DNA of 64,000 nucleotides. Source: Rhizophagus irregularis. Taxonomy: Eukaryota; Glomeromycota; Glomeromycetes; Glomerales; Glomeraceae. The position numbers and the translations under genes were made by a program. The notes below the pieces were generated by a model. It worked only from the letters and a program-made list of their open reading frames with translations, searched no databases and was not told where the DNA came from. The stretch lies in contig NC_089446.1 of the NCBI RefSeq assembly GCF_026210795.1, positions 744,001-808,000 on the forward strand, given 5' to 3'. This document shows, piece by piece, positions 43,174-61,059 of the stretch (positions are counted from its first letter, which is position 1; the number at the start of each line of letters is the position of its first letter).

Positions 43174-44340
43174 ATTAAATATAAAGTTTACATAATTACA
43201 TAAAGATCATCTTTCAAAGATGAAGCAACTCAACATAACCATGTATTGTGTTAGAATTACTCTCTGTCTAAAGAATTTTAACATAGCAGAGGAGAGGGCA
43301 ATTCCACCAAGAACTCTGCATTCACAGTAAACCTATACTTACCAATCTAATGAGAATCATATCTGAATTTGTTATTGAACTTCAACAAATTTCTTGAAGA
43401 AATCTAATAAGAAGAATAAAAAAAAAATGTAAGATCCTAGGCAATATTATTAACAACATCAGGATATTAGAGATCCAAAACATTGCTAATAACAATCAAA
43501 GTAAGCATAAAGTTCACACTCAGTGACTTAGAGGTCATCTTTCAGAGAGGGAACAACTCAACACACCCGTGCATTGTGCTAGAATCACTCTTTGTCTAAA
43601 GAATTTGAACATTACAGAGGAGAGGATAATCCCACCAAGAACTCTGCATTCACAGTAAACCTACACTTACCAATCTAATGAGAATCATATCTGAATTTGT
43701 TATTGAACTTCAACAAATTTCTTGAAGAAATCTAATAAGAAGAATAAAAAAAAATATAAGATCCTAGGCAATATTATTAACAACATCAGGATATTAGAGA
43801 TCCAAAACATTGCTAATAACAATCAAAGTAAGCATAAAGTTCACACTCAGTGACTTAAAGGTCATCTTTCAGAGAGGGAACAACTCAACACACCCGTGCA
43901 TTGTGCTAGAATCGCTCTTTGTCTAAAGAATTTGAACATTACAGAGGAGAGGATAATCCCACCAAGAACTCTGCATTCACAGTAAACCTACACTTACCAA
44001 TCTAATGAGAATCATATCTGAATTTGTTATTGAACTTCAACAAATTTCTTGAAGAAATCTAATAAGAAGAATAAAAAAAAATATAAGATCCTAGGCAATA
44101 TTATTAACAACATCAGGATATTAGAGATCCAAAACATTGCTAATAACAATCAAAGTAAGCATAAAGTTCACACTCAGTGACTTAGAGGTCATCTTTCAGA
44201 GAGGGAACAACTCAACACACCCGTGCATTGTGCTAGAATCACTCTTTGTCTAAAGAATTTGAACATTACAGAGGAGAGGATAATCCCACCAAGAACTCTG
44301 CAATTCACAGTAAACTCACACTTACCAGTCTAATGAAAGT
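43174..44340. repeat. 327-bp tandem repeat, three full copies and one partial
   Basis: The landmark GTAAGCATAAAGTTCACACT occurs at 43501, 43828 and 44155, exactly 327 bp apart. A first, more diverged copy precedes 43501 and a truncated one ends near 44340. Copies two and three are almost identical, so the amplification is recent. No open frame is shared. Confidence 0.85.
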
Positions 44341-53664: not shown

Positions 53665-56600
53665 TTAGTCTTCAAAATTTTTTAATTCTTTTTTTTCCTG
53701 TTCTAATTCTGATTTCAATTCATATATATTCTTTTTCAGCGAATTTATTTCTTCTGTCTTCATTCCTTCTTGAGAATTAGTGGTAAATTTAAAAATTTCA
53801 TATTTATCAATATTAAAAGAATTTGACTTAAGAATATTTTCAATTATAAACTTAACTTTCAAGTCTTTGTTGTTTTGAGCAATTTTCATTAAGGAATTAT
53901 AATTTTTTTTCAGCTGTACTAATTTATTATTAAGGATATTTTGAAATTCTTTATCAAACTTATTATTATCCATACCAACTATATTAACTATATTGCTAAT
54001 AGTATTTCCAGCAACTGACATAACTCTTCCAATAAAATAATTAATTATTTCATTTTGATTATATTCTTCTTTATTAGTAAAAGTATTAATGAATTCCTCT
54101 TGTAAAATTAAAATATCACTTTTAATTTTTAAAAAATTAGTAATTTGATTGAGAACATCCTTAGCATTTTTTTCATAAATTAATCTATTTACTAATTTTT
54201 TTCTTTCTTCTGTTAACTTTTTAATACATTCATAATCCAAATCAATCAGTTTTTGTTCTAATTGCATTTCAATTTGTTCTTTTTCAATTATTTTTTGTTC
54301 CAATTGAGTAATTTTTTCTTCCATTTTGGGTTTTTCTAAGTTAGAAAACTTTTGATTTTGTAAAAGAACTTCATTCATAATTTGGGGTTGACTTGGATCA
54401 TTTTCTTTTTGTTTAATCAAACTTTCTAGCTGTAATTTTAATTGTTGAATAGAACTTTTTGTTTCAATTAATTGAACATGCCAATTCTTTTTTTCTTGTT
54501 CTAACTGACCGATTTGAATTTGAGCTTGCCGATTAGTCAGCTCATTTTGTTTTAACTCTTTCTTTTCCGTTTGAATATTTTGATTTGATACTGATGATGA
54601 TTTTTCCTTTTGTTTAATTATATTTTCTTGCTGAGATTCTAGTTCTTGAACTATGGTTTTAAGTTGGATTAATTGATCTTGTAATTTATTTTTTTCTCTC
54701 ATTTGACTTTGAACTTGGTCATTAATTGGTTTAAACATCTCAATTAAATAGCCAGCTAAAGATTGCTTGTCGTTTTCCAAACAAGTAATTTGAGCTTGTA
54801 GAGTATTTTCTTTTTCTTCAAATTCTCTATTTTGTACATCTAAAGTAAGTTTCAGATTTTGATAATCTTGTTCAAATTGAGAATTTCTTTGTTGTAAATT
54901 AATTAATTCCATTCGAATTTTTTGATATGCTAAATGCATTTCTTTCAACTCCTTTTGGTTAATTCCAATTTCCATTTGAGAACTTTCATAATAAGATTTA
55001 GCAATTGTCTCTAGTTTAAGATTTTCATTCTTTACTTGCTCATAATTAATTTGAGATTGACTTAATTCATTTTCTAATTGCTCTTTTTGTTTAATTATAC
55101 TTTCTTGTTGAGATTTTAATTCTTGAATGTAAGCTTCAGTTTGTTTTAATTGATCTTGCAAAATATTTTTCTCTTGATTTAACTGACTGATTTGAGTTTG
55201 AACTTGTTGATTAGTCATTTTATTTTGTTTTAACTGCTCAGTTAGTTTGCTAGTTAAAGTTTGCTTTTCATCTTGCAAACAAGTAATTTGAGCTTGCAAA
55301 GTATTCTCTTTTTCCGCAAATTTTCTATTTTTTACATCTAAAGTAAATTTCAGATTTTGATAATCTTGTTCAAATTGAGAATTTCTTTGTTGTAAATTAG
55401 TTAATTCCATTTGAACATTTTGATATACTAAATGCATTTCTTTTAACTCTTTTTGCTTAATTCCAATTTCCATTTGAGAACTTTCATAGTAAGTTTTAGC
55501 AATTGTCTCTAGTTTAAGATTTTCATCATTTATTTGCTCAGAATTAATTTTGGATTGATTTAATTCATTTTCTAATTGCTCTTTTTGTTTAATTATACTT
55601 TCTTGTTGGGATTTTAATTCCTGTTCAGTTTGTTTTAATTGATCTTGAAGTTTGGTTTTCTCTTGGTTTAACTGACTGATTTGAATTTGAACTTGTTTTA
55701 ACTGCTCTGTTAGATCACCATTTAAAGTTTGCTTTTCGTCTTGCAAACAAGTAATTTGAGCTTGTAAAGTATTTTCTTTTTCTTCAAATTCTCTATTTTG
55801 TACATCTAAAGTAAGTTTCAGATTTTGATAATCTTGTTCAAATTGAGAATTTCTTTGTTGTAAATTAATTAATTCCATTTGAACATTTTGGTATACTAAA
55901 TGCATTTCTTTCAACTCTTTTTGCTTAATTCCAATTTCCATTTGAGAATTTTCGTAATAAGATTTAGCAATTTTTTCTAGTTTAAGATTTTCATCATTTA
56001 TTTGCTCATAATTAATTTTGGATTGATTTAATTCATTTTCTAATTGCTCTTTTTGTTTGATTATACTTTCAAGCTGAGATTTTAATTCTTCTTCTGTTCG
56101 TTTGAATTGATCTTGAAAATTAATTTTTTCTTGATTTAACTGACTTATTTGAGTTTGAACTTGTTGATTTGTCAGTTTATTTTGTTTTAATTGCTCAGTT
56201 AGATCACCAGTTAAAGTTTGCTTTTCATCTTGCAAACAAGTGATTTGAGCTTTCAAAGAATTTTCCTTTTCGACAAATTCTTTATCTTGTATATCTAAAG
56301 TAAATTTCAGACTTTGATAATCTTTTTCAAATTGAGAATTTTTTTGTTGTAAATTAATTAATTCCATTTGAATATTTTGATATGCTAAATACATTTCTTC
56401 TAATTCTTTTTGTTTAATTTTAATTTCCATTTGAGAACTTTTATAATAAGTTTCAGCAATTTTTTCAAATTTTTTCTTAGTATCCTTTTCTTTTTGTTTT
56501 AATTTAAGAAATTTTAATTTTTGAAATTCAAGAATTTCATTTGATTTTCCATCTGTAAAACTAAGCAAACGACTCTTATAATATGCTTGTGGATGAGATT

Positions 56601-57658
56601 CAATAATATTATGATTATTATTAGAAGAAATTGGTGATTTTATGAATTTCATAATATTACTTTTTAATTCTTCATTTATTGGAATACCATCAAAAATCCA
56701 ATTTTTAATAATATTTAAAATTTCTAATGAAGATGGCCTTTTTAATGGATCCTTATTCCAACATTTTTTCATCAAATCTATATAACATTGTGGAGTATTC
56801 TCAATAATTTCAGGACGTTCATCTTTACAAATACTTAAACAAAGTTGAAGATCATGAGCTCTATTATTAAATGGTGGAACGCCAGATGTAAATTCCCACA
56901 TAATCATAGAAAAACTATAAATATCACTAGATAAAGTATAAGATTGACTTAATAAAACTTCAGGTGCCATAAATGGTATAACACCATAAACATTATTTTT
57001 TCTTAAAGATTTTTCGGGTCTACATAATCCTAAATCAGAAATATAAACTTCATCATACTCATTTTTTTCATATTTATGTAATAAAATATTACCATCATGA
57101 AAATCATAATGAATAAGATTTTTTTTATGAATTCTATTAAGTCCAGAAATAATTTTATATAATATATATAATCTTTTTTTCCAATCATTATTGATTATTT
57201 CTATTAAACATCCTCTTAAATTACCCTTATTGGCATAATTCATTATTATCATATATTTTAAAGTATCTGGATTTTTTGTAAATCCATATAAATTAATAAA
57301 TTCGAATTTTCTTAAACATTCTTTATAATGTTTCAACTATAATAAAATATATAATATTAAATAAAATTAGTAAATATATATAAATTATAATTATAAATTT
57401 ATAAATTAAAAAAAAAGAAAAGAAATAGTGTTTTATCATACTTCATTTAAAAATTCATTTAAACTTTCATTTGAATTATTAAAATAATTTAGATGTTTAA
57501 GAACTACTCCATAATCTTCATATATGGCTTTATATATAATACCAAATACTCCTTCATCAAGTTTTTCGACATCTTTAAATTTATTATAAGGAATCCAAAC
57601 TAAACTCTTATTTTCAATAATAAATTTATCAATAATTTCGTTTCCGCTAGTTCCAAAT
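53665..57658 (-). CDS. TKL-type kinase with HYD loop and repeated coiled-coil tail
   Basis: Two firm exons on the minus strand, 57658-57442 and 57336-53665, join in frame across GTATGA...TTATAG. The first carries FGTSGNEIIDKF, WIPYNKF and a glycine loop LDEGVFGIIYKA with VVLKHL. The second gives 1,223 residues: YGFTKNPDTLKYMI, HYDFHDGN (Tyr replaces the Arg of HRD), SDLG, MAPE and CWNKDPLKRP, then a coiled coil of over 800 residues. About four near-identical blocks of 150-170 residues start at YYKSSQMEI, YYENSQMEI, YYESSQMEI and YYESSQMEI. The HYD change would alter the loop that senses activation-segment phosphorylation, but Asp and Asn remain. I infer a scaffold-like kinase that oligomerises through the tail. 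The true start lies upstream, through the microexon array. The second exon does not begin with a start codon. Confidence 0.8.
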
Positions 57659-58567
57659 CTTTTTTAAATAAATTACGTTAGAATTTGTATTAAAAAACTA
57701 ATTATAATACTGAATAACATAAAATATTACTTACTCTAAAAATTAAAAATAGAATTTTAATAAATGAATAAAATAAAATAAATTAGCTTAGTTAATTTTA
57801 CTATATAAGAACGATATATAATAACTTCAGATCAAAATTACCGACTAAAGTAAGATTACCAAATTTTTTTTTTTTGAAAAAAAAAAGAATTTAATTAAAA
57901 TTGTAAGTATAAAATATTAATATAATCAACAAACAATATTTATCAAATAAAATATATATTTATACTACTTACAAGCTATATATTTAAATAATATTTTAAA
58001 TGAAAAAATTTAATTAGTTTAAATTATTATATAAAATATTCAGTTAGAGTAAAAATAAATAACTTTGTAAACTTACGAGCTAAAATATTTAATTAATTTT
58101 TCAAATAAAAATTTTTAAAATTAGTTTAAACCATTTATAAATAAATGGAATTAAATAAGTAACTTATAACTTACAAGCTAAAATATTTAAATGATTTTTT
58201 AAAATAAAAAATTTAGTTAGTTAAACTATATATAAATATTATATAAAGCAAATAGAATTAAATAAAATAAAATAAAATATGAACTTACATCCTATATTTT
58301 AAATATATTTTTTTAATCACGAATTAAATTGGTTTCAAATTATATACGAAATATTATATAAATATAATAAATAATTTATGACGACTTACGCTCTATATAT
58401 ATAATTTTTAAATAAAAAATTCAGTTAAATTAGTATATACAGTATATAAATAATATAATATAAATATGGTAAAATTAAATAAATAACTTTTAACCTACCA
58501 ACTAAAATAGTTAATTGATTTTTTTTTAAAATAAAATTTCGGTTAGTTTAAATTACATATAAAACAC

Positions 58568-58698
58568 GGGTCTGGTACAAAATCCCGAATGTCAAAATCC
58601 CGAAAATCCAGAGCCGGGCAGAATTATGTTTAATGCTGGCCAATTTTTCGGGATTTCGTACCGTTCGAGATTTTGACATTCGGATTTTGTACAGATCC
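58568..58698. mobile_element. short inverted-repeat element inside the microexon array
   Basis: The left arm GGGTCTGGTACAAAATCCCG with AATGTCAAAATC matches the reverse complement of the right arm, GGATCTGTACAAAATCCGAA with TGTCAAAATC. The element explains why the spacing of the flanking microexons (58501 to 58750) is about 130 bp longer than the norm. I see no clear target duplication. Confidence 0.6.
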
Positions 58699-60069
58699 AA
58701 TAATTACTATATAAATATAAAAAATTAAATAAATAATTTTATAACTTACTAGCTAAATATTTAATAATTTTTGAATTTTTGAATAATTTGGTTGGGGTTG
58801 GTTAGTTTAAATATTATATAAATACGATAAAATTAGAAAGTCATATAACTTACGATCTAAATAAAGAATCTGATTAGTTTAAATTATATAAAAATATTAT
58901 AAGAACTAAATAATTGACTTACGTTCTATATTTTTAATAAATTTAGTTAATGTTCATCTTAATATAAGAATTTGATTATTTGCAAAACAAGTAGAATTAT
59001 AATAAATAACTTATAACTTACGAACTAAAATATTTAAATTTTATAAATAAAGAATTTGGTTAGTTTAAATTATATACAAATATTATATAAGAAATTAAAT
59101 AATAACTTACGTTCTATATTTTTAATAAATTTGGTTAGTTTAAATTATAGTATAAGTAATACAATTTAAGTATAATAAATAGAATAGAAGAAATAAACTT
59201 ATAGCTTACTGGCTAAAGTATTTAGAATAAGGAATTTGGTTAGTTTAAAATATGTATAGATGTTACGAGAAGATATACAATAAATTAAATTAATAACTTA
59301 CTAACTAAAATATTTAAATAATATTTAAATAAAAAATAAATATAATTAGTTTAAATTATATGGAAATATTACGTGTATATAAAATAAAATTAACAACTTA
59401 CCAACTAAAATATTTAAATAATTAAATAATTTTAAATAAAGAATTTGGATTAATTTAAATTATATGCGAATATTATATATAAATACGATAGATTACTTAC
59501 TAGCTAAAATGTTTAAAATGTTTAAATAATTTATTAAACAAAAAATATAATTAGTTTATTATACGCAAATATTTAATAAATATAAAATAATTTATAGCTT
59601 ACAAGCTAAAATATTTAAACAATATTTAAATAAAGAATTTAATTAGTTTAAATTATATATGAAATATCGTTTAAATCACATAAAAATTTATAACTTACGC
59701 TCTAAAATAAATTTTAAATAAAAAATTAATTAGTTAAATTATATGAAATGTCATTTAACTATAATAGAATCAAGTAAATAATTTATAACTTACTAACTAA
59801 AATATTTGGACGTTTTGTTTAAATTACATAATTACCATGAAAAAATAATTAGTTTAAATTATATATAAATATACATAATAGAATTTAAATAACTTAACTT
59901 ACCGACTAAAGTAAATTCCAACCGATTTTTAAAATAATGAATTTAGTTGGGTTTGCACATATACTGTATATCACATGTAAATCATCAAACATAAATATTA
60001 TATAACTTACACCCTATATAATTATAATTTTAAGGTGTAATTAATTATATGAAAATAAATTTTAAAATT

Positions 60070-60350
60070 TCTTAATGTACACAGATGCGACAGATGCGTT
60101 ATCACGACTATCACGTGACCTTACAAAATTTTATGTAAAAAAAAAATTGACATATGACGTTTATTAAAAAAAAATGCACATAATTGTAGTATTTTTTCTG
60201 CAAGTTTACCTTCAATGATGTTTTGAATATCACTTTGCCTTATTTAATAAATCTTTTCCTTTTTTTCGTTAAATTTACAATATTTTTTTTGGAAACTCGT
60301 GATTGAGTGATGGAAGCACCTGTGTACAAATAGAAATTTCCAATAATATG
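60070..60350. other. insert in the longest intron of the array
   Basis: The interval between microexons 60011 and 60377 is about 265 bp longer than the other spacings. It holds a minus-strand open stretch with RQSDIQNIIEGKLAEKILQL, which could be a captured coding scrap or an extra exon. No terminal repeats found. Confidence 0.3.
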
Positions 60351-61059
60351 ATAATAGATACAAAATTATAACTTACAATCTAATATTTAAATATAAAATT
60401 GTTAGTGTAAATTAGTGTAAATGATGCGTAAATATTTTAAAATTAATATAATAAAAATTTATAACTTACCGGCTAAGTAATATTTAAAACCAGTTATTTT
60501 AAAGAAGAATTTAGTTATTTTGAATGTCATGTAGGATACTGCAAAAATAAATAACTAATAACTTACCAACTATAATATGATTTATCGTTAAATAAATTGT
60601 TTTGTTATATAAAATATAATAAATGTAAGTCGATTATTATAAACTATTTTATAAAGATTATATAACTTACGAGCTAAAATAATTTGATTTTTAAGAAATA
60701 ATTTAGTTTAAAATAATAGATGAATATTATTTAAAATATAAAGAATTAAGGAACATAATTTACAAGCATCATAAATAAATTTAACTACCTTCAGCTTCCT
60801 TGGCACTTAAAGCTAATTTTATTATGTTACAATTTGTATTAAAAAAATATTGGAATAATTAATTTTGTTAAATTTTCAAGTTCATGGTATATATTTCTTT
60901 ACCTTTATCGTTATTATCCATTACTTTCAGTTATCTTTCTAAAAATCGGGTATTCGTATGTATTTTCTTTATTAAAGTCTTTATTATTTGTAGAATGGTA
61001 TATATAGCTGTTTGTTATGGTATTACGAAAGATGATGCAAAGCTACGTCATTGATATTG

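What the first reader, a model, noticed from the sequence alone, without database searches (positions are those of the whole stretch)
57735..60812. Twenty-five consecutive single-codon exons separated by homologous introns
Seen directly: 25 times in about 2.9 kb of the minus strand, an acceptor AG is followed by exactly three bases and then a GTAAGTT-type donor. The flanking AG and GT are kept in every unit, while the three bases differ freely and the rest of each unit has drifted. The 75 separating bases hold 32 G/C (43%) in a background that is overwhelmingly A/T. Joined in the only frame that links the 24-nt exon at 60789-60812 to the kinase exon at 57658, they contain no stop and use codons like the neighbouring coding exons. 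A neutral satellite would not keep splice sites while freeing only the bases between them. One reading is that an exon of about 75 nt was split at every third base by multiplying introns (introner-like); another is duplication of an intron-microexon unit. I know of no described array of this kind.
Basis: partly seen in the sequence, partly recalled or inferred. Interest (0 to 1): 0.95.

Follow-up and report, generated by a model that had tools for sequence, protein, structure and literature searches.

The report
Protein segment built from one-codon exons
In a symbiotic soil fungus, dozens of kinase genes seem to encode part of their protein one codon-length piece per exon, each cut off from the next by its own intron, and the DNA alone shows that these pieces are kept readable in their exact order.

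Summary
The window is from Rhizophagus irregularis DAOM197198 (scaffold N50 equals the length of contig C13). On the minus strand, 25 three-base exons lie between a 24-nt exon and a kinase gene. I read such arrays at 27 loci: 1,148 chained triplets, 23-84 per locus. With fixed splice flanks the genome holds 1,024 exons of exactly 3 nt against 40 in a reversed control; lengths 4-12 together do not exceed control. Decisive test: in the frame set by the ATG, codons straddle the introns. Stops appear at 1 of 956 adjacent junctions; shuffling triplet order gives 45.6. Skip-one junctions show no depletion. Donor strength compensates for the last exon base. Units seem to multiply as exon-centred modules whose triplets vary far more than their introns. 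I read this as a constitutively spliced, hypervariable segment with one exon per codon. No transcript was available, so splicing is inferred.

The parts
60971..61010 (-). 5' flank with a TATATATA-type element that looks shared with paralogous loci (in several of them ACTATATATACTCGAATAAAGGCGTTTAAT)
   Evidence: by eye, not tested
60903..60921 (-). exon 1, 19 nt, ATGGATAATAACGATAAAG, ends in phase 1
   Evidence: many paralogues start ATGGCTCAAAGT
60789..60812 (-). exon 2, 24 nt, ends in phase 1
60671..60673 (-). single-codon exon 1 CTC
60567..60569 (-). single-codon exon 2 TTG
60470..60472 (-). single-codon exon 3 CCG
60377..60379 (-). single-codon exon 4 ATT
60011..60013 (-). single-codon exon 5 GGT (after a 363-nt intron)
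59903..59905 (-). single-codon exon 6 TCG
59794..59796 (-). single-codon exon 7 TTA
59699..59701 (-). single-codon exon 8 AGC
59603..59605 (-). single-codon exon 9 CTT
59501..59503 (-). single-codon exon 10 CTA
59402..59404 (-). single-codon exon 11 TTG
59302..59304 (-). single-codon exon 12 TTA
59210..59212 (-). single-codon exon 13 CCA
59111..59113 (-). single-codon exon 14 AAC
59022..59024 (-). single-codon exon 15 TTC
58923..58925 (-). single-codon exon 16 AAC
58854..58856 (-). single-codon exon 17 ATC (66-nt intron before it)
58750..58752 (-). single-codon exon 18 CTA
58499..58501 (-). single-codon exon 19 TTG (donor GTAGGT; 248-nt intron before it)
58390..58392 (-). single-codon exon 20 AGC
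58289..58291 (-). single-codon exon 21 GAT
58175..58177 (-). single-codon exon 22 CTT
58077..58079 (-). single-codon exon 23 CTC
57973..57975 (-). single-codon exon 24 CTT
57842..57844 (-). single-codon exon 25 TCG (donor GTAATT)
57735..57735 (-). one-nucleotide exon A, restores the kinase reading frame
57442..57658 (-). first kinase exon; begins with the third base of a codon split over three exons (G|A|A = Glu), then FGTSGNEIIDKF
53665..57336 (-). rest of the gene: protein kinase domain and a long coiled-coil-like repeat region, open to the stop
   Evidence: 'coiled-coil-like' by eye

Best explanation
This is a protein-coding gene of a large kinase family in the arbuscular mycorrhizal fungus Rhizophagus irregularis. 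Between its second exon and its kinase exon, every codon-length piece is its own 3-nt exon (25 here, 23-84 in the chains of the loci read), each followed by a homologous intron of about 93 nt. The mature mRNA is inferred to contain all triplets in genomic order, followed by a one-nucleotide exon that sets the kinase frame. The exons are all of one size and phase (phase 1), so the last base of one triplet and the first two of the next make a codon. A duplicated module therefore adds one amino acid and does not shift the frame. Modules (half-intron, triplet, half-intron) seem to multiply and reshuffle by recombination in the shared intron core. Triplet positions 1-2 set an amino-acid class (xAA Lys/Glu/Gln; xAT Asn/Asp/His/Tyr; xGG Trp/Arg/Gly; xTT Phe/Leu/Ile/Val), and the third base of the preceding triplet picks the member. 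The result is a hypervariable N-terminal segment on a kinase. Shown: the anatomy, the stop avoidance in the exact full-inclusion order, the frame role of the one-nucleotide exon, the splice-site compensation, the excess variation in triplets. Inferred: actual splicing, its order (probably intron by intron, since both sites of a 3-nt exon can hardly be bound at once), and the biological role (a diversifying binding or regulatory surface).
For: Stops at adjacent junctions in the predicted frame: 1 of 956 (25 loci, 1,016 triplets) against 45.6 +/- 5.2 in 2,000 within-locus shuffles, minimum 29; at lag 2, 3, 4, 5 the counts are 40, 52, 47, 39 against 43.0, 40.5, 38.3, 36.3, so only true neighbours are protected; 24 of 25 loci have none; distinct ordered triplet pairs 1 of 348 against 29. 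Three further loci: 0 of 53, 0 of 35 and, for a partly read locus, 0 of 25 junctions. Exon length with fixed flanks: 3 nt 1,024 genome-wide against 40 in the reversed control; 4-12 nt together 183 against 288; 0-2 nt 124 against 105. Frame: of 11 loci joined by script from ATG to kinase exon, 10 are open with the one-nucleotide exon and all 11 carry stops without it; the codon split over three exons is Glu at 16 of 22 loci; at the 24 of 27 loci where the kinase exon was located it starts with one base of a split codon. Donor +5 is not G after 80 of 278 triplets ending in G but after 24 of 767 others (odds ratio 12.5), and the effect holds inside the A[AT]n class (47 of 87 against 7 of 372). 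YTAAY stands 18-70 nt before the acceptor in 925 of 1,019 introns (no control run); keeping an intron gives an in-frame stop in 1,013 of 1,019. The frame downstream is open in the window and has a Pfam kinase domain.
Against: No RNA was available. The 10 of 10 hits with OCT59 names (which I take for this assembly because two of their contig lengths equal C2 and C4) start at an internal Met in the kinase exon (P0003), although that genome's annotation was refined with Nanopore RNA reads (PMC10234402 passages). C13b has one in-frame TAG in the array and at C25 the three-exon codon is TAA. Four of 27 chains lack a one-nucleotide end. No intronless copy was seen among 150 scored hits. Three automatic gene models from other strains or species seem to chain triplets, but partly in phase 0. 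Triplets are never stop codons themselves (0 of 1,016), so phase 0 is also open inside the array; it fails at both ends. In the shuffles two sense codons, GGG and GTT, are also rarer than expected and lag 3 and 4 are above the shuffle mean, so neighbour order is not random for other reasons too; array duplication makes junctions non-independent. The 0-2 nt count does not exceed its control as a whole.
Confidence: 0.85

Rival explanations
1. The whole block is one long intron removed by stepwise (recursive) splicing: AG-NNN-GTAAGT sites are ratchet points and the triplets do not stay in the mRNA.
For: Acceptor and donor lie almost back to back, as at ratchet points; the introns are homologous and repetitive.
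Against: Ratchet points leave zero bases; here 3 nt is kept at about a thousand strict sites. Stop avoidance across neighbouring triplets has no reason if triplets are removed. By phase arithmetic (exon lengths) joining exon 2 straight to the kinase exon breaks the frame unless one more base is kept.
Confidence: 0.05
2. The triplets are optional: each transcript includes a different subset, so one gene makes many N-terminal variants by alternative splicing.
For: The triplet exons are all 3 nt, so any subset keeps the frame; modules are near-identical and could easily be skipped.
Against: Skip-one and longer junctions carry stops at or above the shuffled rate (40 against 43.0, 52 against 40.5 and so on), so skipped products have not been kept readable, while neighbour junctions have.
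Confidence: 0.12
3. An exon was split at every third base by mobile introns (introners) that inserted repeatedly.
For: Identical introns recur between different triplets and on different chromosomes, e.g. one 88-nt intron 16 times.
Against: Triplet class is tied to both flanking half-introns more than the two ends of an intron are tied to each other; chains hold 23-84 triplets in different paralogues (some chains incomplete), which fits unit duplication; insertion at exactly every third base would need a strange target rule. All 24 clusters listed by blastn of the window block proved to be arrays of this family (list cut at 163 matches).
Confidence: 0.1
4. A neutral satellite or decayed gene relic with chance splice-like motifs.
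For: AT-rich tandem repeats; C4b, C13a, C13c, C19 and C25 look damaged or incomplete.
Against: Exon length, stop avoidance, frame closure and donor compensation; similar 5' exons and open downstream frames at most loci.
Confidence: 0.02

Closest known systems
Bicycle and megacycle genes of aphids
   Same: Many tiny internal exons, nearly all of one phase, in a fast-evolving gene family; the megacycle gene has more than 100 microexons (PMC9168663, passages read).
   Different: Here the exons are 3 nt and in phase 1, between a short leader and a kinase domain, in a fungus. Secretion was not looked for.
Micro-exon genes (MEGs) of schistosomes
   Same: Tandem symmetric microexons that vary a protein (listing only; details recalled).
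   Different: MEG exons are longer (6-36 nt, recalled) and the proteins secreted (recalled).
One-nucleotide exons (APC11 and VPS55 in plants, CYP621A in Fusarium)
   Same: A single base is an exon needed for the frame, and annotation misses it (PMC4674806 abstract and introduction; PMC8831610 passages; PMC12940212 abstract).
   Different: Here it ends a long array and recurs in at least 23 paralogues.
Single 3-nt microexons of animals
   Same: Same exon size, e.g. homothorax micro-Ex8 in Drosophila (PMC7392893, listing and start of abstract).
   Different: A single, alternatively spliced exon.
Introners / intron gain by tandem duplication
   Same: Near-identical introns in many copies (PMC9860276 passages; PMC4974935 listing).
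   Different: Here the copied unit is centred on the exon and confined, as far as seen, to one gene family.

Membership tests
Microexon (internal exon of 30 nt or less) | short internal exon between canonical splice sites | tested here: met
   AG before and GT/GC after are required by the chaining; the 3-nt length is shown by genome counts
Microexon (internal exon of 30 nt or less) | included in mature mRNA | not testable with these tools
   no RNA; indirect support from stop avoidance
Schistosome MEG / aphid bicycle genes | many symmetric internal exons of one phase | tested here: met
   3-nt exons read in phase 1
Schistosome MEG / aphid bicycle genes | sequence homology to those families | not tested
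   no direct comparison made; Pfam found only kinase families in the parts scanned, so I do not file it as a member
Introner arrays | copies inserted at unrelated sites in unrelated genes | tested here: inconclusive
   all 24 listed blastn clusters are arrays of this family, but the list is cut
Recursive-splicing ratchet points | zero-length exon, AG directly followed by GT | tested here: not met
   no TAG-GTAAGY of zero length in L001-L028, which hold the 3-nt sites
Protein kinase (Pkinase / PK_Tyr_Ser-Thr) | Pfam domain above cut-off | tested here: met
   E 6.5e-31 in the window ORF, 4.3e-33 in the C10a model

The most novel reading that the evidence does not exclude
Rhizophagus irregularis has a gene family that writes a hypervariable protein segment one codon per exon: roughly 3,000 single-codon exons in the genome (extrapolated), duplicated and reshuffled as exon-centred modules inside near-identical introns, under diversifying selection, all spliced constitutively and brought into the kinase frame by a one-nucleotide exon. 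It would be a germline diversity generator that works at the level of single amino acids.
Probability: 0.5. Interest if true: 0.97.

Novelty: categorically new. Interest (0 to 1): 0.93.

Why it matters
Tandem runs of 3-nt exons are an extreme test of how small an exon a spliceosome can define, and here a fungus seems to rely on dozens in a row per transcript, at 27 or more loci. It offers a natural system for ordered splicing without room for simultaneous binding at both ends of an exon. It also suggests protein length and sequence being varied one residue at a time by recombination between introns. And it is a class of coding sequence that the annotation seen here did not record: the public models of this assembly that I saw start inside the kinase exon.

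Tried and rejected
Rejected: 'only 75 nt between exon 2 and the kinase exon' (frame fails). Rejected: array gaps over 125 nt as lost exons; most of the 60 listed contain a 3-nt exon with a variant donor (GTATGT, GTAAAT, GTGAGT, GCAAGT). Some gaps hold inserted DNA (window: 363-nt and 248-nt introns, the latter with an inverted repeat) and some stay unresolved.

Limits of the counts: the refined chains of 25 loci contain 7 exons of 6-12 nt, which I treat as chaining artefacts or small insertions, and 8 of the 27 chains begin with a CTT that is probably spurious, so 1,148 is a little high. Introns over 135 nt, runs under 3 and junctions beside other exon lengths were dropped before the stop count, which used the third-pass chains. 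In one search, 14 of 25 loci were left out because a pattern for exon 1, exon 2 or the kinase acceptor did not match (in some the exon may be missing); of the 11 joined, C23 has exon 2 cut short by the pattern and C2b has one 6-nt exon. One search uses each unit's best partner, and its pN and pS only units with the same preceding base: pN 0.163, pS 0.071, flank 0.009 rests on 4.5 synonymous differences.

Tried without result: an intronless copy in the genome (150 hits scored of 3,412 candidates); proteins in public data carrying the joined N-terminus (4 hits, all starting inside the kinase exon; none; 38 hits). Among the hits a few models reach upstream. P0016 joins exons 1-2 to the kinase through a filler that would fit a false 7-nt exon (again 1 modulo 3; my guess). 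P0014, P0017 and P0023 carry residues that look like chained triplets, partly in phase 0; the nearest own locus of P0014 shares the end (NNGVGGRRHL against NSGVGGHGGHL). I cannot tell whether those are transcript-based or ab initio, so I do not count them as proof of splicing. Structure prediction was not tried because the joined protein is not contiguous in the window. Literature: searches listed no array of consecutive 3-nt exons; only open-licence papers are held, and I saw listings, abstracts or passages, no whole paper.

Full report
WHAT IS THERE. The block lies on the minus strand of contig C18 of G000, 146.75 Mb in 32 contigs. The gene runs ATG exon (60921-60903), 24-nt exon (60812-60789), 25 exons of 3 nt, one exon of 1 nt (57735), first kinase exon (57658-57442), then one long exon with the rest of the kinase domain and coiled-coil-like repeats to a stop at 53665. 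The block has 24 AG-NNN-GTARG sites where resampling gives 0.07.

IT IS A FAMILY. A blastn search of the block against the own genome listed matches in 24 clusters (my grouping) on 14 further contigs, the list being cut. I read these and the window, 25 loci, and two more. In L001-L028, TAG-N(n)-GTAAGY sites on the coding strand are almost only n = 3, with one n = 1 at most loci, none of n = 0, 4 or 5, and a few of 6-12. Chains that favour 3 nt hold 1,045 triplets in 25 loci and 1,148 in 27. Genome-wide, TTTTAG-NNN-GTAAGTNA occurs 1,024 times against 40 for the reversed pattern; the same flanks with 4-12 bases between them occur 183 times against 288, and with 0-2 bases 124 times against 105 (75 of the 100 places listed read TTTTAG-A-GTAAGT by my count). 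The 27 loci hold 377 of the 1,024, so the genome may hold about 3,000 single-codon exons; this is an extrapolation.

IT IS READ AS CODONS, IN ORDER. Exon 1 and exon 2 leave phase 1, so each codon is the last base of one triplet plus the first two of the next. In 60 clean runs (1,016 triplets, 956 junctions, 25 loci) this frame has 1 stop; shuffling the order of triplets inside each locus gives 45.6 +/- 5.2, minimum 29 in 2,000 shuffles. The third frame has 151 against 123, and triplets taken by themselves are never stops. Junctions between triplets two, three, four or five apart show no depletion: 40, 52, 47, 39 against 43.0, 40.5, 38.3, 36.3. TAA, TAG and TGA are each rare (0 against 28.4, 1 against 13.5, 0 against 3.7), while GAA, TGG and TTT are enriched; GGG and GTT are also rarer than shuffled, so order is not random for other reasons too. 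Counting only distinct ordered pairs, to soften the effect of duplication, leaves 1 of 348 against 29. Three loci added later have 0 stops at 53, 35 and 25 junctions. The one exception is C13b. I conclude that selection has kept the full-inclusion order readable.

THE ONE-NUCLEOTIDE EXON. At 23 of 27 loci the chain ends in a 1-nt exon. Of 11 loci that a script could join from ATG to the kinase exon, 10 are open with it (C13b has its one stop) and all 11 carry stops without it; the other 14 of the first 25 were incomplete in that script. At 24 of 27 loci the kinase exon was located and starts with one base of a split codon; it was not located at C4b, C13a and C2e. The codon made from the last triplet, the 1-nt exon and the first base of the kinase exon is Glu at 16 of 22 loci, Lys at 2, Ala, Val and Asn at 1 each, and a stop at C25, where no exon 1 was recognised.

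SPLICE SITES. Introns up to 140 nt have a median of 93 nt; 925 of 1,019 have a YTAAY 18-70 nt from the acceptor, most often 40-49 (no control run in this AT-rich sequence); 1,013 of 1,019 would give a stop if kept. Where the triplet ends in G, which pairs with U1 (recalled), the donor more often lacks its +5 G: 80 of 278 against 24 of 767, and inside the A[AT]n class 47 of 87 against 7 of 372. Such compensation is what working 5' splice sites show (recalled); related units make these counts partly non-independent.

HOW IT EVOLVES. Acceptor type goes with the following triplet (Cramer's V 0.55) and donor type with the preceding triplet (0.38), but donor and acceptor types of one intron less so (0.19). 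So the moving unit looks like half-intron, triplet, half-intron, with recombination in the shared intron core. Best-matching units whose 81 compared flanking bases are identical (165 pairs) still differ at triplet positions 1, 2, 3 in 6, 19 and 26%. At mean flank divergence of 0.9% (341 pairs) pN is 0.163 and pS 0.071, on few synonymous differences. Either strong diversifying selection or homogenisation of introns by gene conversion would do this; I favour both together. Of 20 chains that begin with the first CTC or CTT, 17 start ALENW or a close variant; the other 7 of 27 begin elsewhere; Phe precedes the three-exon codon at 15 of 22 loci. Between these ends the peptides differ in length and sequence and are rich in Arg, Glu, Phe, Trp, Asn, Asp, Tyr, Lys.

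WHAT IS NOT SHOWN. No RNA was at hand. Ten of ten OCT59-named models and three R. clarus models seen start at an internal Met in the kinase exon, which is what I would expect of pipelines when exons are too small to find; PMC8831610 reports that STAR could not map reads across a 1-nt exon until it was annotated (passages). Mapping reads to exact joined strings could settle it.

NOVELTY. One-nucleotide exons are known in plants and, in a 2026 paper, in Fusarium; isolated 3-nt exons are known in animals; genes with many one-phase microexons are known in aphids and schistosomes. A protein stretch in which each codon-length piece is a separate exon, repeated through a gene family, was not found in searches. 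The machinery is ordinary; the architecture seems to be new.

Noticed in passing
window 58502-58749: The 248-nt array intron carries an inserted inverted repeat (GTACAAAATCC ... GGATTTTGTAC), probably a small mobile element, without loss of the splice sites.
   Followed up: partly
window 60014-60376: The 363-nt array intron is about 270 bases longer than its neighbours and seems to hold an insert.
   Followed up: no
window 54752-56466: Tandem repeat of 468 bp, 3.5 copies, inside the coding exon after the kinase domain.
   Followed up: no
window 43201-44336: Tandem repeat of 327 bp, 3.5 copies, 96% matches.
   Followed up: no
genome G000, e.g. C5:3584278-3828494 and C8:4068259-4160172: Many TTTTAG-A-GTAAGT motif sites cluster on C5 and C8 at places not among the arrays I read; whether they are exons is unknown.
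   Followed up: no
C2b, C2d, C5a, C25 loci (L012, L015, L020, L031): Downstream of the first kinase domain lies the start or body of a second one instead of the coiled-coil region; several first kinase domains have HYNFHNGN where HRD is expected and look like pseudokinases (by eye).
   Followed up: no
C13a (L026/L027): The longest chain (84 triplets) leads into coiled-coil-like sequence; no kinase exon was located.
   Followed up: no
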